A stretch of 64,000 nucleotides of DNA, from NCBI RefSeq assembly GCF_000014565.1, contig NC_008268.1, positions 4,278,001 through 4,342,000 of the forward strand, written 5' to 3'. Of this stretch, positions 28,627 through 49,861 are shown piece by piece. Position 1 is the stretch's first letter; each line of letters begins with the position of its first letter. The position numbers and the translations under genes were made by a program. Under the pieces are notes generated by a model. That model was not told where the DNA came from, searched no databases, and saw only the letters and a program-made list of their open reading frames with translations. The DNA comes from Rhodococcus jostii RHA1. Lineage in GTDB: Bacteria > Actinomycetota > Actinomycetes > Mycobacteriales > Mycobacteriaceae.

Positions 28627-30071
28627 TGACCGCGACGACGGCGGACGCCGTGCCCGCCCGCCTCGACCGCGTGCGTCCCCGGAAGACCCGGCTGGGGCTG
28701 GTGTCAGGTGGGCTCGGCGCCTACTGGCCGCAGTTCCCCGGCCTCCTGGGGATCCTGCAGGAGTCCGCCCGTTACGTGACGGGCCGATTCGAGGAGCAGG
28801 ACTGTCAGGTCGTCGATGCCGGGTTCGTCTCGGACCCGCAGGAGGCCGCCGTCGCGGCCGAGACGCTGCGGCAGGCCGACTGCGACCTGGTGGTGATCTT
28901 CCTGACCACCTACCTGACGTCGTCGATGGTGCTGCCGATCGCGCAGCGGACCAACGTTCCGGTGCTGCTGATCGATCTGCAGCCGACCGAGGCGATGGAT
29001 CACGCGAACACCGACACGGGGACGTGGCTGGCCTACTGCGGACAGTGCCCGCTGCCGGAGGTCGCGAACGTGTTCCGGCGCAGTGGCATCGACTTCCGGT
29101 CGGTGTCGGGGTATCTGCACGACGAGAACGCCTGGCGGCGTATCGACGCCTGGGTGAGTGCCGCCTCGGCACGGGCCGCCCTGCGGCACGGCCGGCTCGG
29201 ACTCATGGGTCACCTGTACCCGGGGATGCTCGACATCTCGACCGACATGACTCTGTTGTCGTCGCAGTTCGGCGCGCATGTGGAGGTGCTCGAATTCGAC
29301 GACCTCCGGGTGCGGGTCGATGCGGTCACCGATCGTGAGACGGCAGACCGCGTCGCGCTCGCGAAAGAGATTTTCGCGCTCGACAGTTCGGTGAACGCGG
29401 ACGATCTCGCCTGGGGAGCCAGGGTCTCCGTCGGTCTCGACCGCCTCGTCGCAGACTTCGCGCTCGACGCCATGGCGTACTACCACCGCGGGCTCGGCGG
29501 TGAACTGCACGAACAGCTCGGCGCCGGAATGATTCTCGGAGCGTCCCTGCTCACCGCCCGCGGTATTCCGCTGGCCGGGGAGTACGACATTCGCACCGCG
29601 GTCGCGATGCTGGTCTCGGACCGGATGGGCGCCGGTGGATCGTTCACGGAACTGCAGGCACTGAACTTCCGCGACGGGGTCGTCGAAATGGGTCACGACG
29701 GACCTGCGCATCTGCAGATCTCGTCCGCCGAACCGCTGCTCCGCGGTCTCGGTGTCTATCACGGCAAGCGGGGGTACGGCGTCAGCGTCGAGTTCGACGT
29801 GACCCACGGGCCCGTCACGACCTTCGCGGTCGGACAGAACCGCGACGGTTCGTACACCTTCATCGCGTCCGAGGGCGAAGTGGTTCCCGGCCCGTTGCTG
29901 GCGATCGGCAACACCACGTCCCGGGTCGACTTCGGCCGGGATCCGGGGGAGTGGACGGACGAGTGGAGTGCCACCGGGACCGGTCACCACTGGGCGTTGT
30001 GCGTCGGGCACCGCGCCGGCGCGATCAAGGCCGCAGCAGAGTTGCTCGGCATCGAATTCATCCGGGTCTGA
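28623..30071 (+). CDS. L-fucose/L-arabinose-isomerase-fold protein of unclear role
   Basis: A 482-residue protein of the AraA/FucI fold: KTRLGLVSGGLGAYWPQFPGLL at the N-terminus, CDLVVIFLTTYLTSSMVLPIAQRTNVPVLLIDLQP (about 83-120), GLMGHLYPGMLDISTDMTLL, GEYDIRTAVAMLVSDRMG and a C-terminal HHWALCVGHRAGAIKAAAELLGIE. Arabinose isomerases use Glu, Glu, His, His for Mn2+; a Glu in GEYDIRT and the C-terminal His pair fit part of this. The gene is inside the rhamnose operon (ATGA overlap with rhaI), where no further isomerase is required. It may act on another sugar such as L-fucose or L-arabinose, or on an intermediate. Confidence 0.75.
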   Translation: MMTATTADAVPARLDRVRPRKTRLGLVSGGLGAYWPQFPGLLGILQESARYVTGRFEEQDCQVVDAGFVSDPQEAAVAAETLRQADCDLVVIFLTTYLTSSMVLPIAQRTNVPVLLIDLQPTEAMDHANTDTGTWLAYCGQCPLPEVANVFRRSGIDFRSVSGYLHDENAWRRIDAWVSAASARAALRHGRLGLMGHLYPGMLDISTDMTLLSSQFGAHVEVLEFDDLRVRVDAVTDRETADRVALAKEIFALDSSVNADDLAWGARVSVGLDRLVADFALDAMAYYHRGLGGELHEQLGAGMILGASLLTARGIPLAGEYDIRTAVAMLVSDRMGAGGSFTELQALNFRDGVVEMGHDGPAHLQISSAEPLLRGLGVYHGKRGYGVSVEFDVTHGPVTTFAVGQNRDGSYTFIASEGEVVPGPLLAIGNTTSRVDFGRDPGEWTDEWSATGTGHHWALCVGHRAGAIKAAAELLGIEFIRV

Positions 30072-30100
30072 AGTCAAGAATCTCGAGGGAGAAACACGAA

Positions 30101-32140: not shown

Positions 32141-33597
32141 TGGATGCGTTCGCCGCGATCGACCTGGGCGCGTCCAGCGGGCGGGTGATGCTGGGCCGCG
32201 TCGCCGACGGCGTGATCACCCTCGACGAGGTCGCGCGCTTCCCGAACCGCCCGGTGCGGCTGGACGGATCGCTGCACTGGGATCTGGCCGGCCTGTACCG
32301 GGGTGTGCTGGACGGACTGCGGGCCGCGGCGACGGAGGCCGAGGCCCGCGGTGATGTTCTCGTGTCGATCGGTATCGACACGTGGGCGGTGGATTACGGG
32401 CTCCTCGGCGGCGACGGCTCGCTCCTCGGGATGCCGTACCACTACCGCGATCAGCGGACGTGGGGCGTCGCGGCCGGGGTGCGATTGTCGATACCGGATC
32501 GGGAGTTGTTCGAGCGCAACGGTATCGCGCAACTGCCGTTCAACACGCTGTACCAGCTGCTGGCCGAGCTCGAGAGCGGCGCGCAGCGGCTCGACGTGGC
32601 GGAGCAGTTGCTGATGATCCCCGACCTTCTGGCGTACTGGCTCAGCGGGGTGCGCGTCGGCGAGGTGACCAATGCGTCCACTACCGGTCTGCTCGATCCG
32701 GTGAGCCGCGACTGGGATCGTGCGCTGGTTACCCGGCTCGGTCTCGACGACCGCGTGCTACCGCCGTTGGCGGAGCCCGGTTCGGCGATCGGACCCGTCC
32801 GGCCCGATGTCGCCGAAGACATCGGCGCGACGGACCGTCCCCCGATGGTGGTGGCGGTCGGCAGCCACGACACGGCGTCGGCCGTCGTCGCGGTACCCGC
32901 GGCGAGCACGCGGTTCGCGTACATCGCGTCGGGGACGTGGTCGCTGGTGGGAACGGAACTGCCCGGCCCGGTGCGCACCGAGGACGTGCGGGCGGCGGGG
33001 TTCACCAACGAGGCCGGCGTCGACGGCACCACCCGGTTGCTGCGGAACGTGATGGGCATGTGGCTGGTGCAGGAGTCGATGCGGCAGTGGCAGGCGGACG
33101 GGCTCGAAATGTCACTGCAGGAACTGTTGGAGGACGCCGCAGCGCTCACCGACCTCGGCTCCGTCGTCGACCCGGACCTGCCGGTGTTCCTGCCGCCGGG
33201 AGACATGCCCGCCCGCATCGCCGCCGAATGCGCGCGGACGGGTCAGCGCGTGCCGGAAAATCCGGCCGAGGTGATCCGATGTGTGCTCGACAGTCTCGCG
33301 GACGCGTACCGGCGGTCGGTGCAGTCGCTCGTCGAGCTCACCGGCACGCCGATCGACGTGGTGCACATCGTCGGCGGCGGATCCCAGAACGCCCTGCTGT
33401 GCCAGCTGACGGCGGACGCCACCGGGCTGCCCGTCGTCGCCGGACCCGTCGAGGGTTCCGCCCTCGGCAATGTCCTGGTGCAGGCTCGGGCGGCCGGTGT
33501 GCTGTCCGGGGGACTCGCCGAACTGCGTGCGGTCGTGTCGGATTCGTTCACCCTGCGCGAGTTCGCGCCGTCGGCCGCTGCGCTGTCCCGGGCCTGA
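32140..33597 (+). CDS. rhaB: Rhamnulokinase
   Basis: A 485-residue FGGY-family kinase that phosphorylates L-rhamnulose at O-1. The ATPase phosphate loops are DLGASSGRVMLGRV (6-19) and YIASGTWSLVGTEL, with the catalytic Asp in IGIDTWAVDYGLL and the adenosine motif VVHIVGGGSQNALLCQL. The ATG overlaps the aldolase stop codon (TGATG), so translation is coupled. It is the last gene of the operon; a terminator follows at 33614-33637. Confidence 0.93.
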   Translation: MDAFAAIDLGASSGRVMLGRVADGVITLDEVARFPNRPVRLDGSLHWDLAGLYRGVLDGLRAAATEAEARGDVLVSIGIDTWAVDYGLLGGDGSLLGMPYHYRDQRTWGVAAGVRLSIPDRELFERNGIAQLPFNTLYQLLAELESGAQRLDVAEQLLMIPDLLAYWLSGVRVGEVTNASTTGLLDPVSRDWDRALVTRLGLDDRVLPPLAEPGSAIGPVRPDVAEDIGATDRPPMVVAVGSHDTASAVVAVPAASTRFAYIASGTWSLVGTELPGPVRTEDVRAAGFTNEAGVDGTTRLLRNVMGMWLVQESMRQWQADGLEMSLQELLEDAAALTDLGSVVDPDLPVFLPPGDMPARIAAECARTGQRVPENPAEVIRCVLDSLADAYRRSVQSLVELTGTPIDVVHIVGGGSQNALLCQLTADATGLPVVAGPVEGSALGNVLVQARAAGVLSGGLAELRAVVSDSFTLREFAPSAAALSRA

Positions 33598-34965: not shown

Positions 34966-35017
34966 CCCCACGTCAGTGCCATCGAGTGCTCGGGCACGCA
35001 AAAACACTCACGTGGGG
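34966..35017. repeat. Inverted repeat after rmlC
   Basis: CCCCACGTCAGTG (34966-34978) and CACTCACGTGGGG (35005-35017) pair at 12 of 13 positions, with a T-tract next to the rmlC-side arm on the minus strand. The rmlC stop codon lies in the right arm. It may terminate rmlC and also resembles the GTGAGT-type repeats elsewhere in the window. Confidence 0.6.
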
Positions 35018-35595
35018 AAGGTGGGCAGCACTCCGGCGTCCAGGGCCTGCTGCAGAGACGGTGCGGCCGAATCCTTCTCGGACAGCTGGAACGTCAGCGG
35101 GCTGCCGTCCCGGCCCACCGTCGGCCAGTCGATTCCCAGTTCGGGATCGAGTGGATGGAGGTCGTGGTCGAGGGCCGGGGTGTACTCGATCGAGCACAGG
35201 TACATCACGGTCGACGCGTCCTCGAGGGACAGGATCGCGTGGCCGACACCGGCCGGAAGGTAGACCGCGCGGCGGTCGGCGTCATCGATGAGCACCGAAT
35301 CCCACTGCCCGAACATCGGCGACCCGACCCGCAGATCGACGATGACGTCGAGGAACGCACCCTTGACGCAGGTGACGTATTTCGCCTGTCCGGGCGGGTT
35401 GTCGGTGAAATGGATGCCGCGCAGGACCCCGGCGGCGGACACCGAGCAGTTGGCCTGCGCGAGTTCGAGGCTGTGCCCGACGGCGGCCTCGAACTCCGAG
35501 CCCTTGAACCATTCGAGGAACACGCCGCGGTCGTCGCCGAACTGCCGCGGGGTGATCTCCCAGGCGCCCGGAACCTTCAGTTTCCGATACTCCAC
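35008..35595 (-). CDS. rmlC: dTDP-4-dehydrorhamnose 3,5-epimerase
   Basis: A 195-residue cupin enzyme of dTDP-L-rhamnose synthesis. Family motifs are RQFGDDRGVFLEWFK, SVSAAGVLRGIHF with the catalytic His, GQAKYVTCVKGAFLDVIVDLR and YLPAGVGHAILSLEDAS. GTG 35595 is one base after the rmlA stop; longer in-frame starts overlap rmlA. dTDP-rhamnose supplies the rhamnose of the linker that joins arabinogalactan to peptidoglycan. rmlD is not in the window. Confidence 0.93.
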   Translation of the reverse strand: MEYRKLKVPGAWEITPRQFGDDRGVFLEWFKGSEFEAAVGHSLELAQANCSVSAAGVLRGIHFTDNPPGQAKYVTCVKGAFLDVIVDLRVGSPMFGQWDSVLIDDADRRAVYLPAGVGHAILSLEDASTVMYLCSIEYTPALDHDLHPLDPELGIDWPTVGRDGSPLTFQLSEKDSAAPSLQQALDAGVLPTFPT

Positions 35596-35596
35596 G

Positions 35597-38321
<2,725 letters not shown>

Positions 38322-38331
38322 CGCGGTCTCC

Positions 38332-39315
38332 TCAGGACGGCTGCGGCACCCGGGAATCCTCGTGGACGAGGGCGTTGCGCAGCGAACGGGAACCGGCGAT
38401 CGCGGCGACGAACCCGGCGAGCACCTCGCACAGCGTGAACACCAGGCGTGACGCGAGGGCCAGCCCGAGCGCGACCCCGCTGTCCATGAACGGAGACAGC
38501 GCCGCGACGACGACGGCCTCGCGGACCCCGATGCCGGACGGCGCGACCACTACCAGCACGCCGGCGCACATGCCGAGGGCGATCGCGCCGATGCACTGTA
38601 TGAGGGTGCCCGCCGCGAATCCCACCGAACTCGACGCGAGGAACCAGAGGTGCACGCCGTAGAGGACCCAGCTGACGGCGCACCAGCCGAGGGCCCGCGC
38701 GATCTTGTGCATGGTCAGCTGCCGCTGCAGCGGGGCGCGCCGCAGGATCCGCAGGGCCAGGTTCACCAGCCGGGTGAGGACCGGAGGATAGCAGCAGATG
38801 AGGGCGATCGGGACGAGAACGATCACCGCGACCGCCGCGACGGTGCTGATGTGGAACAGGGCGGGCAGCGCCAGCAGCCCGACGACCAGCGCCGACGTGA
38901 TGCTCAGCCCGACGGTGACGAGGACGGCGACGAATCCGTTGGCCCGCGACACCCCGGCCCGGCGCACCAGCTCGGTCTGGAGGACGAACGCCCACACGCT
39001 GCCCGGCAGGTACTTACCGAGCTGACCGACCAGGTAGCAGCGGGCGGCGTCGAAGGCGGGGATCGGGTGTGCGAGGGCGCCGAGCGCGTGCTGCCACGCG
39101 CGCACCGCCGCGCCCATGCCGAGGAAGACGAACACCGCGGAAACGGCGAGCGCCCACCAGTCCAGCTGGGTGATCGTGTCCCTGACTTCGGCCCACTGCG
39201 ATTTCACGGCGAACACGACGGCGACGACGATCGCGAGGGTGACGAGGATCCGCAGCGCGGTCATCAGGACGGCGCGACCGCCGCGTTCCGGGACGATCTC
39301 GGGATCGGCGTCCAC
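38332..39315 (-). CDS. YbhN/AglD-type membrane protein, flippase-like (LPG_synthase_TM)
   Basis: About 327 residues with some eight helices of the lysylphosphatidylglycerol-synthase TM type (DUF2029-unrelated). Motifs: WWALAVSAVFVFLGMGAAVRAWQHAL, CYLVGQLGKYLPGSVWAFVLQTELVRRAG (about 85-115) and VVVAPSGIGVREAVVVAALSPFM near the C-terminus. Members beside glycan genes are suspected to help lipid-linked sugar movement. GTG 39315 is preferred because GAGGGGG precedes it; a TTG at 39378 would add 21 residues. It sits directly after the LpxA-like gene, suggesting a joint role. Confidence 0.75.
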   Translation of the reverse strand: MDADPEIVPERGGRAVLMTALRILVTLAIVVAVVFAVKSQWAEVRDTITQLDWWALAVSAVFVFLGMGAAVRAWQHALGALAHPIPAFDAARCYLVGQLGKYLPGSVWAFVLQTELVRRAGVSRANGFVAVLVTVGLSITSALVVGLLALPALFHISTVAAVAVIVLVPIALICCYPPVLTRLVNLALRILRRAPLQRQLTMHKIARALGWCAVSWVLYGVHLWFLASSSVGFAAGTLIQCIGAIALGMCAGVLVVVAPSGIGVREAVVVAALSPFMDSGVALGLALASRLVFTLCEVLAGFVAAIAGSRSLRNALVHEDSRVPQPS

Positions 39316-39393
39316 GAGAACCACCCCCTCACCGGCAGTGCGCTGCGACGGTGCAGCGTTCGTTTCCGACGATAGCAATCGGAGGGCGCCGGA

Positions 39394-40113
39394 TCAGGAA
39401 ACGAGCGGTTTCACCGCAAGCTCCCGCCACCAGGCGAAGGCGCCGGCGAGCGACTGCGGGAGTTCCGCGTCGGCGTCGAGCCGCCCCGAGGCGTACAGCG
39501 CCGCCACGGCCGCGATGTCCCGGTCGGCGATCCCGGCGCGGCTCATGCCCACCCGGTTGGTGCCGCGCAGGACCGCGGGATTGCCGAACACCGTGGCGAA
39601 CGGCGGAATGTCCTTGGCGACGACCGATCCCATTCCCACCATCGCGCGCGCACCGATCACCCGCCGCTGATGCACCACCGCGCTCATGCCGAGATTGACG
39701 CCGTCGCCGAGGGTCACGTGACCGCCGAGGGTGCTGGACGGCGAGAGGACGCAGTCTTCGCCGATTCGGACGTCGTGCTCGACGGACGTGTGGTTCATGA
39801 CGAATCCGCCGCGCCCGATGGTCGTCGGCCGCTCGGCGCCCTGCTGGACGGCGCTCATCTCCCGGATCACGGTGCCCGCGCCGATCACGACACCCTGGTG
39901 CGGGCTGACCTCCGTCCACGTGCGGGGATGCGTCTTCCCGATCCACTCCGGCGGCGCCCCGAGAGTCGCGTGGGCGCCGATCCAGCAGTCGTCGCCGATG
40001 TCGAGAGGGCCGGTGAGGACGGCATACGGTCCGATGCTCACCCGGTCCCCGACGGTGACGCCGTCGCCTATCACGACGGTCGGATGGATCTCGCAGTTTT
40101 CACCGATGGTCAT
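39394..40113 (-). CDS. LpxA-like left-handed beta-helix acyltransferase
   Basis: A 239-residue hexapeptide-repeat acyltransferase. Repeats run from IHPTVVIGDGVTVGDRVSIGPYAVLTG to GARAMVGMGSVVAKDIPPFATVFGNPAVLRG. His113 in NHTSVEHDVRIGEDC aligns with the catalytic His125 region (IAHD) of LpxA. The segment GVVIGAGTVIREMSAVQQGAERPTTIGRGG and the FGNPAVLRGTNRVGMSRAGI end also follow LpxA. A short C-terminal helical part follows. Gram-positives have no lipid A, so the substrate must differ; divergent genes at 40218 and 41318 could make a 3-amino sugar for it. An N-acetyltransferase of the WbpD kind is the alternative. ATG 40113 is chosen over upstream codons. Confidence 0.8.
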   Translation of the reverse strand: MTIGENCEIHPTVVIGDGVTVGDRVSIGPYAVLTGPLDIGDDCWIGAHATLGAPPEWIGKTHPRTWTEVSPHQGVVIGAGTVIREMSAVQQGAERPTTIGRGGFVMNHTSVEHDVRIGEDCVLSPSSTLGGHVTLGDGVNLGMSAVVHQRRVIGARAMVGMGSVVAKDIPPFATVFGNPAVLRGTNRVGMSRAGIADRDIAAVAALYASGRLDADAELPQSLAGAFAWWRELAVKPLVS

Positions 40114-40217
40114 GAAAGTTGGCGATTCCTTCCAGGAGCCGTGCAGACCGTGGGAACCTTCAAGTGGGTGCAATCTGTGAAGACGGTGTGAACGCACGTC
40201 AATCTATCGGAGGAACC

Positions 40218-41318
40218 GTGATCGCGATCTCGAGTATCTCTTTCGGAGAGGACGTCGAGCGCGAGGTTCTCGACACCCTGCGATCCGGGATGGTCGCGCA
40301 GGGACCGAAGGTCGCGAGGTTCGAGGAGGGGTTCGCCGAACTCGTCGGTACCCGGCACGCCGTGGCCGTCAACAGCGGCACCACCGCGCTGATCGCGGCG
40401 CTGCGGGTGCTGGATCTCCAACCGGGCGACGAGGTGCTCACCACCCCCTTCACGTTCGTGGCCACGCTCAACGCGATTCTCGATTCCGGCGCGACGGCCC
40501 GGTTCGCGGACATCGGAGAGGCCGATTTCGCGCTCGACCCCGACGTCGTTGCGGAGTGCGTGAACGAGCGCACCCGGGTGCTGATGCCGGTGCATCTGTA
40601 CGGGCAGACCGCGGACATGGGTGCGTTGATGCCGCTGGCCGAGACCGAGGGGCTCGCCGTCGTCGAGGACGCCGCCCAGGCGCACGGTGCCACGTTCGAC
40701 GGCAAGGGTGCGGGCAGCTTCGGGCTCGGTTGCTTCTCGTTCTACGCGACCAAGAATCTCACCACCGCCGAGGGCGGCATGGTCACGACGGACGACGACG
40801 CGGTGGCCGACCGGTTGCGGGTGCTGCGGAATCAGGGCATGCGACGGCGGTACGAATACGAGATGGCGGGCCAGAACTTCCGGATGACGGATCTGCAGGC
40901 CAGTCTCGGGTTGCCGCAGCTGGGTTCCTATCTGCAACAGGTGGAGTCGCGCCGCCGCAACGCGGAGGCGCTGCGGACCGGTCTGAAGGACGTCGAAGGT
41001 CTCGTTCTGCCTTCGGAACTCGCGGGCCGCGGGCACGTGTGGCACCAGTTCACCGTGATCCTCGCACCCGATGCGCCGATCGACCGCGACACCCTCGCGC
41101 AGCGTCTGAGCGAACGGGAGGTCGGCAGCGGCGTCTACTACCCGAGAACCGTCTACGACTACGACTGCTACCGCGAGCATCCCCGGGTGATCGCCTCACC
41201 GACGCCGGTCGCGACGTCCGTGGCCCGCCGGTGCCTCAGCATCCCCGTCCACGCCGCACTCTCCACCGACGACGTCGACCGGATCGTCGCCGCGGCGCGC
41301 GAGGCGATGGAGGCGTGA
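40218..41318 (+). CDS. DegT/DnrJ/EryC1 sugar aminotransferase (GnnB/WbpE-like)
   Basis: A 366-residue PLP-dependent nucleotide-sugar aminotransferase. The PLP Lys is Lys179 in FSFYATKNLTTAEGG; Asp151 and Gln154 in VVEDAAQAHGA and the SGTTAL loop (53-58) are in place. ISFGEDVEREVLDTLRSGMVAQGPKVARFEEGFAE is the family start. GTG 40218 follows GGAGGAACC; the in-frame extension upstream looks non-coding. It is coupled to the next gene by TGATG. Together they would oxidise and aminate position 3 of a UDP-sugar. Confidence 0.88.
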   Translation: MIAISSISFGEDVEREVLDTLRSGMVAQGPKVARFEEGFAELVGTRHAVAVNSGTTALIAALRVLDLQPGDEVLTTPFTFVATLNAILDSGATARFADIGEADFALDPDVVAECVNERTRVLMPVHLYGQTADMGALMPLAETEGLAVVEDAAQAHGATFDGKGAGSFGLGCFSFYATKNLTTAEGGMVTTDDDAVADRLRVLRNQGMRRRYEYEMAGQNFRMTDLQASLGLPQLGSYLQQVESRRRNAEALRTGLKDVEGLVLPSELAGRGHVWHQFTVILAPDAPIDRDTLAQRLSEREVGSGVYYPRTVYDYDCYREHPRVIASPTPVATSVARRCLSIPVHAALSTDDVDRIVAAAREAMEA

Positions 41319-42283
41319 TGACGTCCACGCGACCGCGGATCGCGCTCGTCGGATCAGGCAAGATGGGTTCGCTGCACGCCCGCGTTCTCGCGCAATCCCC
41401 GCTGTGCGACCTCGCCCTGCTGGTGGAACCGCGTGAGGAACACGGGCGGGACGTCGCCGCACGGTTCGACACCGCATGGGCTGCGGATTTCGACGAACTG
41501 GACGGCATCGATGCCGCCGTCGTCGCGGCGGCGACACCCGCCCACTACGAGTTGGCGGGCCGCATCCTCGACCTCGGCAAGCCGGTGCTGGTCGAAAAGC
41601 CGCTCGCCGCAACGTACGAGGAGAGCACCGATCTGGTGAAGCGTGCGGCCGCGACCGGTGTTCCGCTGATGTGCGGCCTGCTCGAGCGCTACAACCCGGC
41701 GGTCCGGACGGCCCGCGAATTCGCCGGTGACGTGTGGCAGGTCAACGGAATCCGGCACTCGCCGTTCGTCTCCCGCATCCCCACCGGCGTCGCGACCGAC
41801 CTGCTGATCCACGACGTCGACCTCGCGATCGGTTTCGTCGGATCGCCGCCCGTCGGCGTGAAGGCCGAGTTCGGGTACTTCCACGACAGTTCGCGACGCA
41901 ACGAGGCCGAGGACTGCGCGGAGGCGGTGCTGCGTTTCGAATCCGGTGCGGTGGCCACCATCTCGGCCAGCCGGGTGAGTCAGCGGAAGGTCCGGCAGTT
42001 GTCGCTGCTGGAGCCGGACCGCCTGATCGAGATCGACCTCCTGCGCCGCGACATCACCATCTACCGGCACATCGACGACGACCTGCCCGCCGACCGCGAC
42101 GGCTACAAGCAGCAGACGGTGATCGAGATCCCCACCCTCCGCTACAGCGACGAACCCCTCGCCGCCCAGCTCGCGCACTACGTCGGGCTGATCGGCGGCG
42201 AGGGGGACGCCGACGCGGAACGCGACTCGATCCTGCCCGCGCATCGCGTGGTCCACGAGGCGACGGTGTCGGCTACCGGCTGA
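41318..42283 (+). CDS. Gfo/Idh/MocA oxidoreductase (GnnA/WbpB-like)
   Basis: A 321-residue NAD(P)-dependent sugar oxidoreductase. The Rossmann motif is IALVGSGKMGSLHARVL (8-24), the EKP motif is in PVLVEKPLAA with catalytic Lys, and GVATDLLIHDVDLAIGFVG has the Asp-His pair of the family. It is coupled to the aminotransferase gene and overlaps the convergent flavoprotein gene by 11 bp. In the GnnA/GnnB and WbpB/WbpE pairs the same two families convert a C3 hydroxyl to a ketone and then an amine. Confidence 0.88.
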   Translation: MTSTRPRIALVGSGKMGSLHARVLAQSPLCDLALLVEPREEHGRDVAARFDTAWAADFDELDGIDAAVVAAATPAHYELAGRILDLGKPVLVEKPLAATYEESTDLVKRAAATGVPLMCGLLERYNPAVRTAREFAGDVWQVNGIRHSPFVSRIPTGVATDLLIHDVDLAIGFVGSPPVGVKAEFGYFHDSSRRNEAEDCAEAVLRFESGAVATISASRVSQRKVRQLSLLEPDRLIEIDLLRRDITIYRHIDDDLPADRDGYKQQTVIEIPTLRYSDEPLAAQLAHYVGLIGGEGDADAERDSILPAHRVVHEATVSATG

Positions 42284-43229
42284 GCGCTCCGGCGACTGCC
42301 AGGCGGGTGTCTTCCGCGATGAGGTCGGCGTTGAGTGCGGCCGCGGCGCTCAGGGAGGCGCCGGCGGCGACGATCACCTGCGCCTTCGGGTCTGCGACGT
42401 TGCCGGCCACCCACACGCCCGGGACCGCGGTGGCGCCGGTCGCGTCGGCGGCGACGGCGGTGCCGATCACGTGTCCGGCCATCTCCATCTCGGTGGTGTC
42501 CAGGCCCAGGCTGGTGAGGAAGTCGGCGCGGGCCCGGAACAGCGGCGGGACCACCACGGCGGTGAGGGAGAAGACCTGACCTGTGCGCAGCCGGACCCCG
42601 GTCAGCCGGTCGTCCTGCACCTCGAGTCCGGCCACACCGCCGTCGATCACGGCGATACCGCGTGCCGCGAGTTGCTCGTACTCCTCGCCGGTGGGTTCGT
42701 TCGCGTCGTTCAGGAACAACGTCACGTTGTCGGTCCACTGCCGCCACATCAGCGCCTGGTGCACCGCCGGCGGACTGCCGGCCAGGACGCCGACCGGCTG
42801 GTCCCGGACCTCCCAGCCGTGGCAGTACGGGCAGTGCAGGACGTCGCGTCCCCAGCGCTCGGCCACGCCGGGGATGTCGGGGAGCACGTCGACGAGGCCG
42901 GTGGTCACGAGCAGTCTCCGCGCACGCACGGTCGCGCCGTCGGCGAGCGTCACCCGGAACTGGCCGTCCCCCACCCTGTCGGCCGACGTGACGGTGCCGG
43001 TCACGATCTCGCCGCCGTACCCGGCAACCTCCTCGCGTCCGATGGCCAGTAGTTCGCCGGGAGGGGTGCCCTCTCGGCCGAGGTAGTTGTGAATGTGCCC
43101 GGCCGGTGCGTTGCGCGGGGCGCCGGCGTCGATCACGAGCACCGATCGCCGTGCCCGCGACAGGGCCAGTGCCCCGCCGAGTCCGGCCGCGCCCCCGCCG
43201 ACGACCACTACGTCGTAACTGTCTTCCAT
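42273..43229 (-). CDS. Thioredoxin-reductase-like flavoprotein
   Basis: A 318-residue FAD/NAD(P) oxidoreductase. FAD motif VVVVGGGAAGLGGALALSRARRSVLVID (7-34), redox-like CPYC in HCPYCHGWEVRD (about 132-143) and PGVWVAGNV (FAD) near the end. The second GxGxxA (NADP) motif is weak (VGVLAGSPPAVHQALM), so cofactor use is uncertain. It is divergent from the XRE-cupin regulator, which probably controls it. Confidence 0.85.
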   Translation of the reverse strand: MEDSYDVVVVGGGAAGLGGALALSRARRSVLVIDAGAPRNAPAGHIHNYLGREGTPPGELLAIGREEVAGYGGEIVTGTVTSADRVGDGQFRVTLADGATVRARRLLVTTGLVDVLPDIPGVAERWGRDVLHCPYCHGWEVRDQPVGVLAGSPPAVHQALMWRQWTDNVTLFLNDANEPTGEEYEQLAARGIAVIDGGVAGLEVQDDRLTGVRLRTGQVFSLTAVVVPPLFRARADFLTSLGLDTTEMEMAGHVIGTAVAADATGATAVPGVWVAGNVADPKAQVIVAAGASLSAAAALNADLIAEDTRLAVAGALSR

Positions 43230-43292
43230 CGCGTTCTCCTTCGTTCGTCGACCTCGTGACGTCCACTGTCCGGTGAGCCCGCAAAACTGGCA

Positions 43293-43304
43293 AGCAAGTT
43301 TGCT
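43293..43304. promoter_or_regulatory. Candidate operator between the flavoprotein and XRE-cupin genes
   Basis: AGCAAGTTTGCT is palindromic apart from its 2-nt centre and sits within a longer GGC-A-AGCAAGTTTGCT-GCC arrangement. It lies 12 bp from the regulator start (probably leaderless) and 64 bp from the flavoprotein start. Confidence 0.45.
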
Positions 43305-43315
43305 GCCGTGGCAAC

Positions 43316-43939
43316 ATGATGTGTGTGAACGACGACGTACCCGACCTGGACGGCGTCCTCGACGCCGTGGGACCGCGGCTCAAAGCCCTCCGCCAGCAGC
43401 GCGGCGCGACCCTCGCCCAGCTCTCCGAGTCCACCGGGATCTCGGTGAGCACCCTGTCGCGGCTCGAGTCCGGCCAGCGGAAACCCACCCTCGAGCTGAT
43501 GCTCCTGCTGGCCCGCGCCCATCAGCTGCCCCTGGACGAACTCGTCGACGCACCCGCCACCGGCGACCCCCGCGTCCATCTGCGGCCCCTCGAGCGGAAC
43601 GGCTCGACGATCATCCCGCTGACCCGCAGGCCCGGCGGGATCCAGGCGTTCAAGCACGTGATCCCGCCGGGTGACCCGAACGGCATACCGAACCTGCAGG
43701 TCCACGAGGGCTACGAATGGCTGTACGTCCTGTCCGGCCGGCTGCGACTGCTGCTCGGCGAACACGACGTGATCCTCACGCCGGGGGAGGTCGCGGAGTT
43801 CGACACCCACGTCCCGCACTGGTTCGGCAACCCCGGACCGCAACCGGCGGAGATCCTCAGCCTGTTCGGCCCCCAGGGTGAGCGGGCGCACGTCCGCACC
43901 GTCCCGCGGGGATCGGCAGCCGAGCGGGACCGTCGGTAG
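43316..43939 (+). CDS. XRE-cupin transcriptional regulator
   Basis: A 207-residue regulator with an N-terminal helix-turn-helix (about 18-72, LKALRQQRGATLAQLSESTGISVSTLSRLESGQRKPTLELMLLLARA) and a C-terminal cupin (about 115-190, VHEGYEWLYVLSGRLRLLLGEHDVILTPGEVAEFDTHVPHWFGN) that probably senses a small ligand. The divergent flavoprotein is the likely target. ATG 43316 or 43319 may serve as start. Confidence 0.87.
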   Translation: MMCVNDDVPDLDGVLDAVGPRLKALRQQRGATLAQLSESTGISVSTLSRLESGQRKPTLELMLLLARAHQLPLDELVDAPATGDPRVHLRPLERNGSTIIPLTRRPGGIQAFKHVIPPGDPNGIPNLQVHEGYEWLYVLSGRLRLLLGEHDVILTPGEVAEFDTHVPHWFGNPGPQPAEILSLFGPQGERAHVRTVPRGSAAERDRR

Positions 43940-44000
43940 AATTCGTCCGGACCGGTGACGAGCGCTCCCTCCGAGGCGCAGGACGTGATGGGGAGGCCCC

Positions 44001-44852
44001 GTGCGACGCTGGATTCTCGGTGTTCCCGTAGCGGTCGTGATTCCGCTCCTCGCAGCCTGTTCCACGACTGTGGCACCGCCCGTGGCGCAGCCGCAGACTC
44101 AATCGCCGCCGCCGACCGCGACCCTCGTGGGCCTGGGGGACTCCATCCCGGCCGGTGACGGATGCCCCGGCTGCACGCCGTTCGTGGAACTGTTCGGTGA
44201 TCAGCTGTCCGGCGACGACGCGGTGCCCGTGCAGGTGGCCGATCTGGGTGTCGGGGGCTGGACGAGCGCCGACCTGCTCGACTCGCTCGAACCCGGCGAA
44301 TACGACGCCGACGCCGTCCGCGACGCCGACCTCGTCACCGTCACGATCGGCGCCAACGACTTCTACGCCGAACTCGACGACTACCTGGACGGCGACTGCG
44401 GTGGCGACGACGGGCTCGGCTGCTTCGAACCCGTCCTGCCGCAGCTGCAGACCACGCTGACGTCCGTGCTCGACCGCATCGCCGAACTGCGGGCCGGTCA
44501 GCCGACCGCAGTGCTGGTCACCGGGTACTGGGACGTCTTCCCGGACGGTGACGTGGCCCGCGAGTTGTACGGGCCGCAGTTCCTCCGGGACAGCGCCGCG
44601 CTGACGCTGCGCGCCAACGACGTCATCTCGGAGGTCGCGGGCGCGGAGGGCGCCACGTACGTCGACCTGTTCAGCACGTTCAAGGGCACGTGGGGCGACG
44701 GCGACCCCACCGGGCTGCTGGCCGACGACGGCGACCACCCGAACCAGATCGGCCACCAGCTGATCGCCGACGCGTTGTCGTCCGCCGCGGTCGCGGGGTC
44801 CGGTTCCACCGAGGCGTCGGCGTTCACGTCGTCCGAGTGGTCGCCGCGCTGA
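44001..44852 (+). CDS. SGNH/GDSL-family lipoprotein esterase
   Basis: A 283-residue exported hydrolase. The lipobox LAAC (Cys20) follows a hydrophobic signal. The SGNH blocks are present: block I GLGDSIPAGDG (Ser nucleophile), block II Gly in DLGVGGW, block III GANDFY and block V DGDHPNQIGH (Asp and His). GTG 44001 follows GGGAGG. It probably deacylates a wall or lipid ester. It overlaps the convergent YfhO-like gene by 29 bp. Confidence 0.87.
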   Translation: MRRWILGVPVAVVIPLLAACSTTVAPPVAQPQTQSPPPTATLVGLGDSIPAGDGCPGCTPFVELFGDQLSGDDAVPVQVADLGVGGWTSADLLDSLEPGEYDADAVRDADLVTVTIGANDFYAELDDYLDGDCGGDDGLGCFEPVLPQLQTTLTSVLDRIAELRAGQPTAVLVTGYWDVFPDGDVARELYGPQFLRDSAALTLRANDVISEVAGAEGATYVDLFSTFKGTWGDGDPTGLLADDGDHPNQIGHQLIADALSSAAVAGSGSTEASAFTSSEWSPR

Positions 44853-47058
44853 GCTTCCGCCTGCGCACCACCGGATCGACGACGGACAGGATCAGCACCA
44901 CGACCGTCGCGGCGCCGAACGCCGCCACGGACAGGTTCTGCCGAGGCGGGCGGAACGTCACGACCAGTTCGTGGTCACCCGGCGGAATCGGCACCGCGAG
45001 CAGACCGTGCCACCCCGCGGTCGTCTCCACCGGCTCGCCGTCGACGGCGGCCGAGTAGCCGGGCCACGCGAGGCGCGCGAACCAGACGGTGCCGCCGCTG
45101 CCTGCCACCCGCACGGTCTCCGTCGCCGCGCTCATCTCGGACGAGAGCACCCGGACGCCGTCGGACGCGAACGACACGCGTCCGGGCAGGGGCAGCGGCC
45201 GGTCACGCTGCAACACCGTCCGGGAGTCGCTGCGCTCGGTGACGTGCCAGCCGGGTGGGGGCGGTGCCGTCGCGACCTCGGGCACGAGCCCGTGCTCCAC
45301 GACGAGCGTCGACACCCGGAGGTAGTCGATCAGCGGGATCGGGATGTCCGCGTTCACCGGCTGCCACAGCGCCCCGTACACCCCGGGGCAGACGGCGCCG
45401 CGGTAGTCCATGCACAGGGCTTCCTGGAACTCGGTGAACCCGATGCCGGTGTAGGCGTTGATGCTGCCCTCGGCGGACGACGCCATGATCTCGTTGCCGA
45501 ACAGGATCCGGCCGGCGCTGACGTCCTCGTGGGACGTGTCGTCCAGGTCGGCGAGTTGCAGCACGGTGCCCTGGTAGCGGTCCGTCTGCGCGGACAGCAC
45601 CGACGTGCTCGACGGATCGACGCGGCTGTCGCGTTCGACGTCGCGGGTGAGGGACCAGACCTGCGCTGCGGTCACCACCACGGTTCCCAGGACGAGGGCG
45701 GCGATGAGAGCATTCGGGCCCCGAGTGCGCCATGCGGTGTACGCGAGCACGCACAGCGCCGCGACGAGCAGCGCGAACAGCGTGTGCCGCAGCGTCAGGG
45801 CGGGTGAGGACGAGAACGCCAGGTAGAAGCCCAGCGCGATCAGCACCGCCGACGCCGTCGCCCGGTGACGCACCCGGTCGTGCGCGATGCCCAGCGACAA
45901 CGCGAGCGCCAGGCCGATCACCCCGCACAGGTACAGGTATTCGACGAGCCGGATCGGCCACCGGAACATTCCGACGTTCGACGGTCCGAACGTGAAGAGG
46001 AAGTAGACGACCGCGATCACGAGCAGGCTGATCAGTGGTCGCCCGTGCGCGCGACGGAACTCCGTGGACGCGAACAGCGTGCGGATCCGGCCCCACGGCA
46101 GCCACGGCAGCAGTGGCAGCACGAACCACGAGAGGTACAGCGACGGGATCACCTCGACCGGCCCGCCGAACGTCATGATGACGGGCAGATACGACGGGCT
46201 GCTCATTCCCGCGAGGCCGCCGATCTGCGGCTGCAGGAACGTGTCGTTGAAGATGCCGGTGCTGCCCGCGCGGGTGGTGACGTCGACGCTGAGGAACAGC
46301 GGCAGGTAGGTCACCAGCGCGGCGGTGCCCGCGCATGCGCCGGTGATCACCAGAACGAACAACCGGAAGAACTGCCGCTGCGCGAGCAGGCCGATCCCGA
46401 TGCCGAGGAGAACGACGACGGCGCCCAGCGCGGCGTACGGGTTGCCCATGCTCACCGTCAGTACGCCGATCACGAAGGCGACCAGCGGGTTCGTGCGACC
46501 GCGGGAGAGGCGCAGCGCCGACCACCAGAACAGCGTCACCCACGCGACGGCCATCATCCCGGACGGCCAGCCCGCCGCCTCGTAGAACAGGGTGAAACCG
46601 CTGAACGGAATGGTCAGTCCGGCGAGGATCGCCGGACCGCGGCGGGCGCCGTATTCGCGGCACAGCAGATACGCGGCGAGGGCGAACAGCGCGAGGAACT
46701 CGGCCATGATCACGAACGCCGCGACGGACAGGTTCTCGAATGTCGCGGCCAGGATGTAGTTGGCCAGGTTGACCGGGTTGTAGAGGCCGTACGCGGCCTC
46801 GCCCGCATAGTTCCCGCCGATCCAGGCGTCGGGATTGACGGTGAGCCACCGCCCGGCGAGGAGTTCGGTGCCGATCCGGTGCCAGGACGGCACGAACGAT
46901 TCCAGCATGTCGCCGCCGTAGTAGAAGCGGTCGTACACGATCCGGGGAATCGTCGCGATTGCCGCGGCAGCCACCGCGACCGCCGATGCCACCATCCACT
47001 CGGGCACGCGGTGTATCGATCGGGTGAACGTCGAGGACACGGACGCGGAGGGTGCCAC
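44824..47058 (-). CDS. YfhO-like polytopic membrane protein (GT-C superfamily)
   Basis: A 744-residue protein with about 12 helices (first about 22-40). The first large loop holds RFYYGGDMLESFVPSWHRIGTELLAGRWLTVNPDAWIGGNYAGE, with Asp residues at the expected catalytic position. The C-terminal beta-domain TVWFARLAWPGYSAAVDGEPVETTAGWHGLLAVPIPPGDHELVVTFRP followed by one last helix is typical of YfhO. In Gram-positives such proteins decorate wall or lipid-linked polymers. It is divergent from the GT2 gene across 31 bp. Substrate unknown. Confidence 0.75.
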   Translation of the reverse strand: MAPSASVSSTFTRSIHRVPEWMVASAVAVAAAAIATIPRIVYDRFYYGGDMLESFVPSWHRIGTELLAGRWLTVNPDAWIGGNYAGEAAYGLYNPVNLANYILAATFENLSVAAFVIMAEFLALFALAAYLLCREYGARRGPAILAGLTIPFSGFTLFYEAAGWPSGMMAVAWVTLFWWSALRLSRGRTNPLVAFVIGVLTVSMGNPYAALGAVVVLLGIGIGLLAQRQFFRLFVLVITGACAGTAALVTYLPLFLSVDVTTRAGSTGIFNDTFLQPQIGGLAGMSSPSYLPVIMTFGGPVEVIPSLYLSWFVLPLLPWLPWGRIRTLFASTEFRRAHGRPLISLLVIAVVYFLFTFGPSNVGMFRWPIRLVEYLYLCGVIGLALALSLGIAHDRVRHRATASAVLIALGFYLAFSSSPALTLRHTLFALLVAALCVLAYTAWRTRGPNALIAALVLGTVVVTAAQVWSLTRDVERDSRVDPSSTSVLSAQTDRYQGTVLQLADLDDTSHEDVSAGRILFGNEIMASSAEGSINAYTGIGFTEFQEALCMDYRGAVCPGVYGALWQPVNADIPIPLIDYLRVSTLVVEHGLVPEVATAPPPPGWHVTERSDSRTVLQRDRPLPLPGRVSFASDGVRVLSSEMSAATETVRVAGSGGTVWFARLAWPGYSAAVDGEPVETTAGWHGLLAVPIPPGDHELVVTFRPPRQNLSVAAFGAATVVVLILSVVDPVVRRRKLSAATTRTT

Positions 47059-47089: not shown

Positions 47090-47890
47090 GTGCGCCTTTT
47101 CGGTTGTTCCCACGACCAGAAAGGCGCACGTGCGCCGAAGGCGCTGTCGGTCGTCGTCCCCGCCTACAATTCCGCCGCCGTCATCGAGCAGACCGTCCAC
47201 CGGCTGGCCGAACGCCTGGCCGGTCACGACGTCGAGATCATCGTGGTGGAGAACGGATCCACCGACGACACCGCGGACATCTGCGGCCGCCTTGCCGCCG
47301 AGTGGACGCCCGGACCCGTGTCGCTCACCGTGCTGCGGAGCGAGAAGGGCATGGGCAACGCGTTGCGGACGGGAGCGGAGGCGAGTCGCGGCGCGCACGT
47401 GCTGCTGACCGCCGACGACCTGCCGTTCGGGTTCGACGACCTCGACGGCGCCGAGACGCTCGCCGGCCACGACGGCCGGCTGCCCGAAGTCGTGATCGGT
47501 TCCAAGGCCCACCCCGACTCGCAGGTGCAACGCGGCGCGCTCCGGGGAACCCTGACGTGGGGTTTCGCGGCGCTGCGCCGCGTGGTTCTCGGGATGCGCA
47601 CCGGCGACCCCCAGGGCACCGTCCTGATGGACGGCGACCTGATGCGAAGACTGGTTCCCGACCTCGTCGAGCCCGGGTTCCTGTTCACCACCGAACTCGT
47701 CTACCTCGCGGAGCGGGCGGGCATCGTGCCGGTCGAGGTCCCGGTGCGTCTGAGCGCCGATCACGACAGCCACGACACCCGCATATCCAGGGGCGATGTG
47801 CTCGCGATGGGGGTGGGGCTGTTCCGGCTGCGGGCCCGTCACCGGGACGGAGGGCGCCTCGCATGGTCGGGGAGCACGTCGCGAGGTTGA
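47090..47890 (+). CDS. Family 2 glycosyltransferase
   Basis: A 266-residue soluble GT-A enzyme. LSVVVPAYNSAAVIEQTVHRL (about 19-39), IIVVENGSTDDTADI, KGMGNALRTGAEASRGAHVLLTADDLPFG with the DD metal site (about 105-115) and a C-terminal LYLAER-like helical part. It resembles polyprenyl-phosphate sugar synthases (DPM1/DolP-Glc type), though without membrane helices. It might supply a lipid-linked sugar to neighbouring GT-C enzymes. The start is GTG 47090; GlfT2 follows 81 bp later. Confidence 0.8.
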   Translation: MRLFGCSHDQKGARAPKALSVVVPAYNSAAVIEQTVHRLAERLAGHDVEIIVVENGSTDDTADICGRLAAEWTPGPVSLTVLRSEKGMGNALRTGAEASRGAHVLLTADDLPFGFDDLDGAETLAGHDGRLPEVVIGSKAHPDSQVQRGALRGTLTWGFAALRRVVLGMRTGDPQGTVLMDGDLMRRLVPDLVEPGFLFTTELVYLAERAGIVPVEVPVRLSADHDSHDTRISRGDVLAMGVGLFRLRARHRDGGRLAWSGSTSRG

Positions 47891-47971
47891 TACCCTGCGA
47901 ACCGAGAAGAGGATCGTGCCGTCGCCGTGGCGCGGTCCAGCCCACCTCTCGCGGGGAACAGTAGGAGCACT

Positions 47972-49861
47972 ATGAACGAGTCTGCGTCGGTAGCACCTGT
48001 GGACGGGAGCACGGCCGCGGTACGGAGTGCTCTCACCGAGCATCGCGCACCCGACCGCCTCGTGGTGGCGCGAGGTCTCTTCACGGGACCGACCACCCGG
48101 GTCAAGGACGACCTGTACGCCAGGATCGTCAAGGGCCGCGCCCACCGCGAGCGTTACGTCGTACACCTCGAGAAGGGTGCGACGGTCGACACCGACACGT
48201 ACTTCGGCCGGTTCGCTGCCAGCTACTACCAGCGCTGGACCACGGTCACCGACGTGACCGTCGGGTTCCACCACGAGGCCGGCGGTCGGGCCGTGGTGGC
48301 GCTGCGCGGCTCCGATTCGGGCGGCAACTCGCGCATCCTCGCGACGACGGAGATCGACGGCTCGGGCACGGCGACGCTGTCCGCGAAGCTCGACGCCTAC
48401 CTCGACGGCGGTTCCCTGTGGGTGGAGTTCACCGCCGTCGACGGCCCCCTCGCCGTGAGCGAACTGGAGTGGACCGTCGCCGCGCCGTCGGTGATCCGGC
48501 CCGCCGCGATCGCGATCTGCACGTTCAACCGCGCCGACGACTGCGCCGAGACCGTCGCCGCCATCGCGAACGACTCGACGATGGCATCCGGCATCGACGC
48601 CGTGTACGTGGTCGACCAGGGCAGCGACCACGTGTCGGACCGGGAGAAGTTCACCGAGGTCGCCGAGATCCTGGGCGACAAGCTCGTGTACCTGCGGCAG
48701 CCGAACCTCGGCGGGGCCGGCGGATTCACCCGCGGCATGTACGAGGTGTCGGGGATCAACGAGCACGCCAACCTGATCCTGATGGACGACGACATCCTGT
48801 GCGAGCCGGAGTCGATCCTGCGGATGAATGCGTTCGCCAACGTCACCACCGAGCCGACTCTCGTCGGCGCGCAGATGCTGTACCTGATGAACCCGGAGCA
48901 CCTGCACGTCAGCGCGGAGGAAGCGGACCTGTCGAAGCTGAAGGCGGGACGTTGGGCGGCCGGGTCGCGGCACGACATCAATCTGCTCAAGAAGAAGCAG
49001 CACAAGCGCGTCGACGCCGGCTACAACGCGTGGTGGTCGTGCCTGATCCCGGCCGAGGTGGTCGCGCAGATCGGGCTTCCGCTGCCGATGTTCTTCCAGT
49101 GGGACGACATCGAGTACGGCATCCGTGCCCGCGCCGCCGGATTCGTCACCGTCACCCTGCCCAATGCCGGTGTGTGGCACGCGGACTTCCACTGGAAGGA
49201 CCGCGACGACTGGGCCAAGTACTTCAGCATCCGCAACTCGCTGATCGCGGCCGCGCTGCACAGTGACTTCGACGCCAAGTCGCTGAGCAAGAGGATGACG
49301 CGGGAGATCACCCAGTACCTCGTGTCGATGCAGTACGGGTTGGCGTACACCATGATTCGCGGTATCGAGGACTTCCTCGAGGGCCCGAAGGTCCTCGAGG
49401 ACGGCGGTCAGGCCGTGCTGGCGTCGATCCGTGAGGAGCGCAAGCGGTTCCCCGAAACCGTCAAGCACCCCGCGTCGAACATTCCCGGTGTCCGCAACTC
49501 CGACCTCGTCACCCGCTACGCCGGTTTCGAGCCGGACAAGAGCAAGATCGACCTCGTCCTCGCCAAGCGGGCCGCGTACCAGTGGCTCGGCCGCACCCAG
49601 CACGGGGTCGCGAGTATTCCTGTGGCCGAGGCGCACTGGTGGCACGTGTCGCTGTTCGACACCGCCGTCATCACCGACGCCTCCCAGTCCGGGGTGCGGG
49701 TGCGCCGCCGCGACAAGGAGACGGCCCGTGAGCTCACGGCTCGGACCGCGAAGCTGATGAAGCGGTTCCGCGAGGATGCGGCGTCGACGCAGCGCCAGTA
49801 CCGGGACGCGTTGCCGCAGCTCACCAGCCGGGAGAACTGGGCTCGCCTCTACGGTAAGTGA
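47972..49861 (+). CDS. glfT2: Galactofuranosyltransferase GlfT2
   Basis: A 629-residue bifunctional polymerase that alternates beta-1,5 and beta-1,6 galactofuranose to build galactan, close to the 637 residues of M. tuberculosis GlfT2. An N-terminal beta-barrel (about 1-170) precedes the GT-A domain (AIAICTFNRADDCAE). Catalytic features: metal motif Asp272-Asp274 in LMDDDILCEP, base Asp378-Asp379 in FQWDDIEYG, and His403 and His407 in VWHADFHWKD. A helical C-terminal region follows. ATG 47972 follows GTAGGAGCACT. Its stop overlaps the next start. Confidence 0.96.
   Translation: MNESASVAPVDGSTAAVRSALTEHRAPDRLVVARGLFTGPTTRVKDDLYARIVKGRAHRERYVVHLEKGATVDTDTYFGRFAASYYQRWTTVTDVTVGFHHEAGGRAVVALRGSDSGGNSRILATTEIDGSGTATLSAKLDAYLDGGSLWVEFTAVDGPLAVSELEWTVAAPSVIRPAAIAICTFNRADDCAETVAAIANDSTMASGIDAVYVVDQGSDHVSDREKFTEVAEILGDKLVYLRQPNLGGAGGFTRGMYEVSGINEHANLILMDDDILCEPESILRMNAFANVTTEPTLVGAQMLYLMNPEHLHVSAEEADLSKLKAGRWAAGSRHDINLLKKKQHKRVDAGYNAWWSCLIPAEVVAQIGLPLPMFFQWDDIEYGIRARAAGFVTVTLPNAGVWHADFHWKDRDDWAKYFSIRNSLIAAALHSDFDAKSLSKRMTREITQYLVSMQYGLAYTMIRGIEDFLEGPKVLEDGGQAVLASIREERKRFPETVKHPASNIPGVRNSDLVTRYAGFEPDKSKIDLVLAKRAAYQWLGRTQHGVASIPVAEAHWWHVSLFDTAVITDASQSGVRVRRRDKETARELTARTAKLMKRFREDAASTQRQYRDALPQLTSRENWARLYGK

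What the first reader, a model, noticed from the sequence alone, without database searches (positions are those of the whole stretch)
39394..42283. GnnA/GnnB/LpxA-like trio in a Gram-positive: possible new acylated 3-amino sugar pathway
A Gfo/Idh oxidoreductase and a DegT aminotransferase are coupled by TGATG, and divergent from them is a beta-helix acyltransferase whose catalytic-His region and C-terminal part follow LpxA. In some Gram-negatives GnnA and GnnB make UDP-GlcNAc3N and LpxA acylates its 3-amine for lipid A. Here there is no lipid A; a flippase-like protein and methyltransferase follow. The set could build a previously undescribed N-acylated or N-acetylated diamino sugar for the envelope.
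Basis: partly seen in the sequence, partly recalled or inferred. Interest (0 to 1): 0.75.

Follow-up and report, generated by a model that had tools for sequence, protein, structure and literature searches.

The report
Diamino-sugar gene trio in Rhodococcus
Three neighbouring genes in a soil actinobacterium look like a pathway that turns an ordinary cell-wall sugar into one with two nitrogen groups and caps the new amine with an acetyl or other acyl group; the chemistry is known from Gram-negative bacteria, but here it sits with Gram-positive export genes and, in some relatives, with its own acyl-carrier genes.

Summary
39394-40113(-) encodes an LpxA-like acyltransferase (ACT), 40218-41318(+) a DegT aminotransferase (AT), 41318-42283(+) a Gfo/Idh dehydrogenase (OXR). 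OXR's best solved relative by sequence is GnnA (UDP-GlcNAc 3-dehydrogenase), also first, but tied, by model. ACT keeps LpxA's catalytic and nucleotide-binding residues, yet misses the LpxA cut-offs and falls outside the LpxA rows of a tree. Its own residue pattern matches Pcryo_0615, a Psychrobacter N-acetyltransferase for a 2,3-diacetamido sugar. Most likely product here: UDP-GlcNAc3NAc or a short-acyl analogue, not a lipid-A-type product. The trio lies together in 42 of 46 actinobacterial loci; ACT is in 20 of 28 genomes of the genus. In 15 of 15 related Rhodococcus-type loci it comes with GT2, YfhO-like and flippase-like genes, suggesting lipid-linked export into an envelope glycan. The new part: in 10 relatives ACT heads the run ACT-ACP-FabG-ligase-LuxE-LuxC, so some members probably use a dedicated acyl-ACP. 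That cassette is not beside the window's trio; LuxE and LuxC were not found in its genome. No step is shown biochemically. A new variant of a known kind; moderately interesting.

The parts
39394..40113 (-). ACT: LpxA-like left-handed beta-helix N-acyltransferase, predicted to act on the 3-amine of UDP-GlcNAc3N
40218..41318 (+). AT: DegT/DnrJ/EryC1/StrS aminotransferase; GnnB-like role inferred
   Evidence: PF01041 388 bits; GTG start conserved; position of amination not decided by sequence
41318..42283 (+). OXR: Gfo/Idh/MocA dehydrogenase, GnnA-like (UDP-GlcNAc 3-dehydrogenase role inferred)
40114..40217 (.). 104-base stretch between the divergent ACT and AT genes
   Evidence: divergent arrangement in 36 of 46 actinobacterial loci
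38332..39378 (-). PF03706 LPG_synthase_TM membrane protein, flippase-like; behind ACT on the same strand
   Evidence: 6 hydrophobic segments; in 29 of 51 stretches clustered, the window included
44824..47058 (-). YfhO/GT-C-like membrane protein, candidate extracytoplasmic glycosyltransferase
   Evidence: PF09586 over a short C-terminal stretch only; 9 hydrophobic segments; in 15 of 15 related Rhodococcus-type loci
47090..47890 (+). GT2: soluble family-2 glycosyltransferase, candidate polyprenyl-phosphate sugar transferase
   Evidence: PF00535; no hydrophobic segment; in 15 of 15 Rhodococcus-type loci, beside OXR in L082 and near AT-OXR in L144
47927..49861 (+). GlfT2-like paralogue in the same gene block, a possible partner in the same glycan
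   Evidence: PF19320 and PF17994; 35% to a second copy beside GLF and UbiA genes
35008..37540 (.). RmlC (-), RmlA (-) and an RmlB-type dehydratase (+) that flank the trio in most Rhodococcus-type loci
   Evidence: RmlA over its cut-off, RmlC 145.7 bits just under 155.75; RmlB-type by PF16363/PF01370 only

Best explanation
A nucleotide-sugar pathway feeding an envelope glycan. OXR oxidises UDP-GlcNAc at C3, AT puts an amine there (UDP-GlcNAc3N), and ACT acylates that amine with a small acyl group, most likely acetyl from acetyl-CoA in this Rhodococcus, giving UDP-2,3-diacetamido-2,3-dideoxyglucose or a short-acyl analogue. GT2 would load the sugar onto a polyprenyl phosphate, the LPG-TM protein would flip it, and the YfhO-like GT-C protein would add it to a rhamnose/Galf-type surface glycan. 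Shown here: gene order, families, conserved linkage, retained catalytic residues, closeness to GnnA and to Pcryo_0615. Inferred: substrates, the acyl group, and every step after the nucleotide sugar.
Against: No biochemistry. AT's best NCBIfam model is PseC, a 4-aminotransferase, below cut-off (269.5 of 423.5), and its PDB list has perosamine and ArnB-type enzymes above WbpE and QdtB, so amination at C3 rests on OXR. OXR's structural lead is a tie. NF040723 is far below its cut-off (120.5 of 450). Pcryo_0615 is matched only from ACT residue 24 on, LpxA over the whole length, and with a profile the best LpxA scores slightly higher (183.5 against 174.3 bits); where Pcryo_0615 joins the tree is not resolved. 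The PPE/R162 pattern is not invariant in ACTs (R in 39 of 51 rows). Seven of 26 order genomes with OXR have no ACT even at E 1e-10. No glycosyltransferase is shown to take this sugar; GT2's solved relatives are weak.
Confidence: 0.6

Rival explanations
1. ACT is a true acyl-ACP (or acyl-CoA) N-acyltransferase that puts a 3-hydroxyacyl or other chain of at most about ten carbons on the 3-amine, LpxA-fashion, in Rhodococcus too.
For: LpxA catalytic set retained; Met at the ruler position (47 of 51 rows), which in P. aeruginosa LpxA and the E. coli G173M mutant selects 10-carbon chains (PMC6408518 and PMC7072397 passages); in 10 of 11 cassette loci ACT is followed directly by ACP, FabG-like, AMP-ligase, LuxE, LuxC, the set listed for Aeromonas flagellin glycosylation islands with an unidentified 102 Da moiety (PMC7874193 passages).
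Against: The window genome has no LuxE match (its control was weak) and no LuxC match (no positive control). LpxA H122 is Ser or Gly in 16 of 16 Rhodococcus rows while 10 of 11 cassette rows keep His; but 6 of 20 other cassette-free actinobacterial rows keep His as well. The same Met is in Pcryo_0615, an acetyltransferase. Two loci (L140, L145) have the cassette with AT-OXR but no ACT nearby.
Confidence: 0.25
2. The substrate is another 3-keto sugar (UDP-GlcNAcA as in the Wbp/Wlb route, or a sugar phosphate as in kanosamine formation), so the product is not UDP-GlcNAc3N.
For: The Psychrobacter paper that presumably describes Pcryo_0615 is, by its title in a reference list, on a glucuronic-acid pathway (PMC10622841); the genome has UDP-sugar 6-dehydrogenase genes elsewhere (two strong PF03721 matches).
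Against: None of the four PF03721 matches of the genome lies in the window; OXR is nearer GnnA than WlbA; ACT keeps the LpxA nucleotide-binding residues.
Confidence: 0.12
3. ACT and AT-OXR are neighbours by accident and belong to different pathways.
For: OXR occurs without ACT in 7 of 26 order genomes; 3 of 22 genomes with ACT lack a close OXR (two of them have a distant one, 34-36%, beside ACT).
Against: 42 of 46 loci hold all three; 19 shared genomes of 249, Fisher p 7e-20, inflated by related genomes.
Confidence: 0.03

Closest known systems
GnnA-GnnB-LpxA route to GlcN3N lipid A (Acidithiobacillus, Leptospira; the pathway itself is recalled)
   Same: GnnA-like dehydrogenase, DegT aminotransferase, LpxA-like acyltransferase with the same catalytic residues
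   Different: No LpxC found in the genome; ACT is outside the LpxA rows of the tree and under the LpxA cut-offs; the D74-K76 loop is not conserved; neighbours are Gram-positive export genes
Pcryo_0615 N-acetyltransferase (PDB 8e62) of a Psychrobacter 2,3-diacetamido-sugar pathway
   Same: PPE loop and N152, R162, M173, P191 pattern; 39% identity over 181 positions to ACT; acts in a diacetamido-2,3-dideoxy-sugar pathway by its PDB title
   Different: Shorter chain, matched from ACT residue 24 on; Gram-negative; pathway probably to a uronic acid (paper not held)
WbpB-WbpE-WbpD / WlbA-WlbB
   Same: Same logic: 3-dehydrogenase, 3-aminotransferase, N-acetyltransferase (PMC10622841 passage)
Aeromonas group II flagellin glycosylation islands (ACP, 3-oxoacyl-ACP reductase, AMP ligase, luxE, luxC)
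   Same: The same five acyl genes, found here behind ACT in 10 actinobacterial loci
   Different: Not beside the window's trio; a link to GnnA- or LpxA-like genes is not described in the passages read

Membership tests
LpxA (TIGR01852 / NF003657) | Score above the curated cut-off | tested here: not met
   150.8 of 231.05 bits and 162.8 of 226 bits
LpxA (TIGR01852 / NF003657) | Catalytic and nucleotide-binding residues H125, G143, H144, H160, Q161, N198, R204 | tested here: met
   all present in the window protein; 25 of 25 relatives, R204 24 of 25; a few exceptions among 51 rows
LpxA (TIGR01852 / NF003657) | Falls inside the LpxA clade | tested here: not met
   ACT and LpxA rows split by a branch with 96/87 support (six LpxA rows, three of them partial chains; 11 rows left out)
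LpxA (TIGR01852 / NF003657) | First step of a lipid A pathway (LpxC follows) | tested here: not met
   0 matches for PF03331 in the genome; the control rings in E. coli and three others
Pcryo_0615-type LpxA-like N-acetyltransferase | Shared residue pattern N152, R162, M173, P191 and PPE loop | tested here: met
   (one known member compared, partial chain; that these residues define the type is my inference)
Pcryo_0615-type LpxA-like N-acetyltransferase | Groups with Pcryo_0615 in a tree | tested here: inconclusive
   both lie outside the LpxA rows, but the fork is open and the Pcryo_0615 branch long
Pcryo_0615-type LpxA-like N-acetyltransferase | Acetyl-CoA dependent transfer to a 3-amino UDP-sugar | not testable with these tools
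   needs an enzyme assay
GnnA (UDP-GlcNAc 3-dehydrogenase) | Closest solved relative by sequence | tested here: met
   7bvj 190.6 bits, next 125.8; title GnnA
GnnA (UDP-GlcNAc 3-dehydrogenase) | Structure nearer GnnA than other Gfo/Idh enzymes | tested here: inconclusive
GnnA (UDP-GlcNAc 3-dehydrogenase) | NF040723 cut-off (archaeal UDP-GlcNAc 3-dehydrogenase) | tested here: not met
   best NCBIfam hit, 120.5 of 450 bits
GnnB (3-aminotransferase) | DegT family with amination at C3 | tested here: inconclusive
   PF01041 388 bits; C3 against C4 not resolved; best NCBIfam model is the 4-aminotransferase PseC, below cut-off
Aeromonas-type ACP/FabG/ligase/LuxE/LuxC acyl cassette | LuxE and LuxC present in the window's genome | tested here: not met
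   LuxE PF04443 0 matches (its control rings only weakly in one genome, but the same family hits L082 at 158.5 bits); LuxC 0 matches (no positive control)

The most novel reading that the evidence does not exclude
Actinobacteria without lipid A run a lipid-A-like first step: a GnnA/GnnB/LpxA-like set whose acyltransferase takes a (3-hydroxy)acyl chain from a dedicated ACP served by a FabG-ligase-LuxE-LuxC cassette, and exports the N-acylated 2,3-diaminoglucose on a polyprenyl carrier into an envelope glycan. Rhodococcus, in which the cassette was not found, would be an acetyl- or house-acyl-using branch of the same system.
Probability: 0.35. Interest if true: 0.75.

Novelty: new variant of a known kind. 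Interest (0 to 1): 0.5.

Why it matters
It predicts a 2,3-diamino sugar in the envelopes of many actinobacteria, for which my searches of the held papers listed no report (most subscription papers are not held), and gives a testable route to it. The cassette-bearing relatives would show LpxA-type acyl-ACP chemistry at work outside lipid A, and comparing them with Rhodococcus and Pcryo_0615 would show how this fold switches between acetyl and longer acyl donors.

Tried and rejected
Lipid A or an LPS-like pathway: rejected, no LpxC match; ACT is the only strong LpxA-model match in the genome (150 bits, the other two 26 and 24). WbpD-type or serine-acetyltransferase identity for ACT: rejected, those models and structures score far lower. 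Reading 47927-49861 as the arabinogalactan GlfT2: rejected; the copy at C1:4255359 lies beside GLF and UbiA genes and scores 289 and 223 bits on the two GlfT2 Pfam domains against 98 and 52 for the window's gene; the two are 35% identical. The methyltransferase 37530-38321 and the genes at 42273-44852 as core parts: rejected, their matches occur only in L051-L054 and L063, and TrxR also in L055 (R. marinonascens). A conserved operator between ACT and AT: one search shows little but the start regions conserved among eight sequences.

The idea that ACT always pairs with the acyl cassette: rejected by L069 (cassette nearby, different order), by L140 and L145 (cassette with AT-OXR, no ACT in the stretch), and by the tree, where the cassette needs 4 gains or losses (10.3 in shuffles).

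Papers: PMC7874193, PMC6408518, PMC7072397, PMC10622841 and PMC8040287 were seen as passages only; other papers only as search listings with abstract starts. The paper that presumably describes Pcryo_0615 (10.1002/pro.4502, PMC9794024) is not held: its title comes from a reference list, the enzyme's role from the PDB title. A query on the codes 8E62 and 7BVJ gave nothing relevant.

Limits: synteny used 32 of the 79 loci (L051-L082) and 20-kb stretches of 18 of the 22 order genomes with ACT at E <= 1e-25 (L033-L050; of the other four, one is the window's own, three were seen only as the short loci L016-L018). The weaker loci L083-L129 were not analysed. In one search L035 and L067 are the same locus. 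Cassette families were scanned in L082 only; the other loci were assigned by BLAST clusters. The second tree left out 11 rows. Treekit labels four Rhodococcus rows as Cyanobacteriota, a name clash. The alignment around LpxA D74-K76 is uncertain and differs. The Foldseek library 'pdb' was never searched, only pdb_via.
Full report
What is there. Between 39394 and 42283 lie three genes. ACT (39394-40113, minus) and AT (40218-41318, plus) diverge across 104 bases; OXR (41318-42283, plus) overlaps AT by one base in TGATG. Family searches give the hexapeptide fold with the LpxA C-terminal domain for ACT, DegT for AT and Gfo/Idh for OXR. Behind ACT on the same strand come a PF03706 LPG_synthase_TM protein and a SAM methyltransferase.

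Is it more than chance? Related loci came from an order-wide search (44 of 249 genomes at the set E <= 1e-10, 22 of them at E <= 1e-25) and a scan of genome contigs (79 loci, of which I used the 32 from L051 to L082). Among 46 actinobacterial loci (L033-L077 and L082, one counted twice), 42 hold AT at 40% or more and OXR at 30% or more, and 36 have ACT and AT divergent. The exceptions are L042, L048, L049 and L077. Of 249 order genomes ACT is in 22, OXR (E <= 1e-40) in 26, both in 19, against 2.3 expected; p is 7e-20, but many genomes are close kin. ACT is in 20 of 28 genomes of the genus but in only 5 of 396 drawn across the phylum, two of them this genome and one of its family: patchy, as for a surface-glycan locus.

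The acyl cassette. In 11 of 51 stretches compared (50 loci and the window), a FabG-like reductase, AMP-ligase, LuxE and LuxC occur together, each time with an acyl carrier protein (families scanned in L082; a twelfth carrier protein, from L145, passes the PP-binding cut-off). In 10 of the 11 the order is ACT-ACP-FabG-ligase-LuxE-LuxC on one strand; in L069 the cassette lies apart. The same five functions are listed for Aeromonas flagellin glycosylation islands, where a 102 Da moiety is unidentified. This is good evidence that some ACTs use an acyl-ACP. All ten lie outside the Rhodococcus branch of the tree (100/99) and keep His at LpxA position 122, where 16 of 16 Rhodococcus rows have Ser or Gly; but 6 of 20 other cassette-free actinobacterial rows keep His too, so the residue is a hint, not a marker. 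The window's genome shows no LuxE (weak control) and no LuxC match (no positive control). Against a strict link, L140 and L145 have the cassette with AT-OXR but without ACT.

Surroundings. In 15 of 15 Rhodococcus-type loci (L033, L051-L064) the trio comes with GT2, YfhO-like and LPG-TM genes and a GlfT2-like gene; RmlB-type matches are in 14 of the 15, RmlA and RmlC in 13, the gaps being contig ends. GT2 lies beside OXR in Kibdelosporangium L082, YfhO beside LPG-TM in L036, and both near AT-OXR in L144. By a simple hydropathy scan GT2 is soluble and LPG-TM and YfhO have 6 and 9 hydrophobic segments. A polyprenyl-phosphate sugar, a flippase and a GT-C transferase are the natural reading, by inference. 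The 47927-49861 gene is a GlfT2 paralogue; the copy beside GLF and UbiA genes lies about 21 kb before the window. Several relatives carry a second aminotransferase with a LegB-like dehydratase, often a hexapeptide acetyltransferase and a GT4, so the glycan there probably has more than one rare sugar.

Judgement. The trio most likely makes UDP-GlcNAc3N and acylates its 3-amine. For this Rhodococcus I favour acetyl or another short group (0.6 for the pathway as stated); a longer acyl group stays possible (0.25). None of it is shown biochemically. My searches of held papers listed no report of this set in actinobacteria; most subscription papers are not held.

Noticed in passing
47927-49861: A GlfT2-family paralogue, 35% to the copy flanked by GLF and UbiA genes at C1:4255359 of the same genome; probably serves a different glycan from arabinogalactan.
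   Followed up: partly
42273-44852: A pyridine-nucleotide-disulphide oxidoreductase, a helix-turn-helix/cupin protein and a GDSL hydrolase lie between OXR and YfhO in the R. opacus/jostii group; R. qingshengii-type loci lack matches to the first and the last.
   Followed up: partly
L034, L036, L038, L039, L043, L045, L050, L066, L068, L072, L074: A second DegT aminotransferase beside a LegB-like dehydratase, often with a hexapeptide acetyltransferase and a GT4, lies near the trio: a bacillosamine-type set.
   Followed up: partly
L048:9925-10692: A protein of genome G144 (same order) groups with true LpxA rows and carries Gly at the ruler position; that genome's AT-OXR pair lies on another contig beside the acyl cassette (L145).
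   Followed up: partly
L080: Planctomycete (Kuenenia) contig with two LpxA-like matches in tandem next to an OXR-like match.
   Followed up: no
28626-33597: A class II aldolase/short-chain dehydrogenase fusion (30101-32140) and an FGGY sugar kinase (32140-33597) follow a 481-aa protein without a Pfam match; by eye a rhamnose or related deoxysugar breakdown operon.
   Followed up: partly
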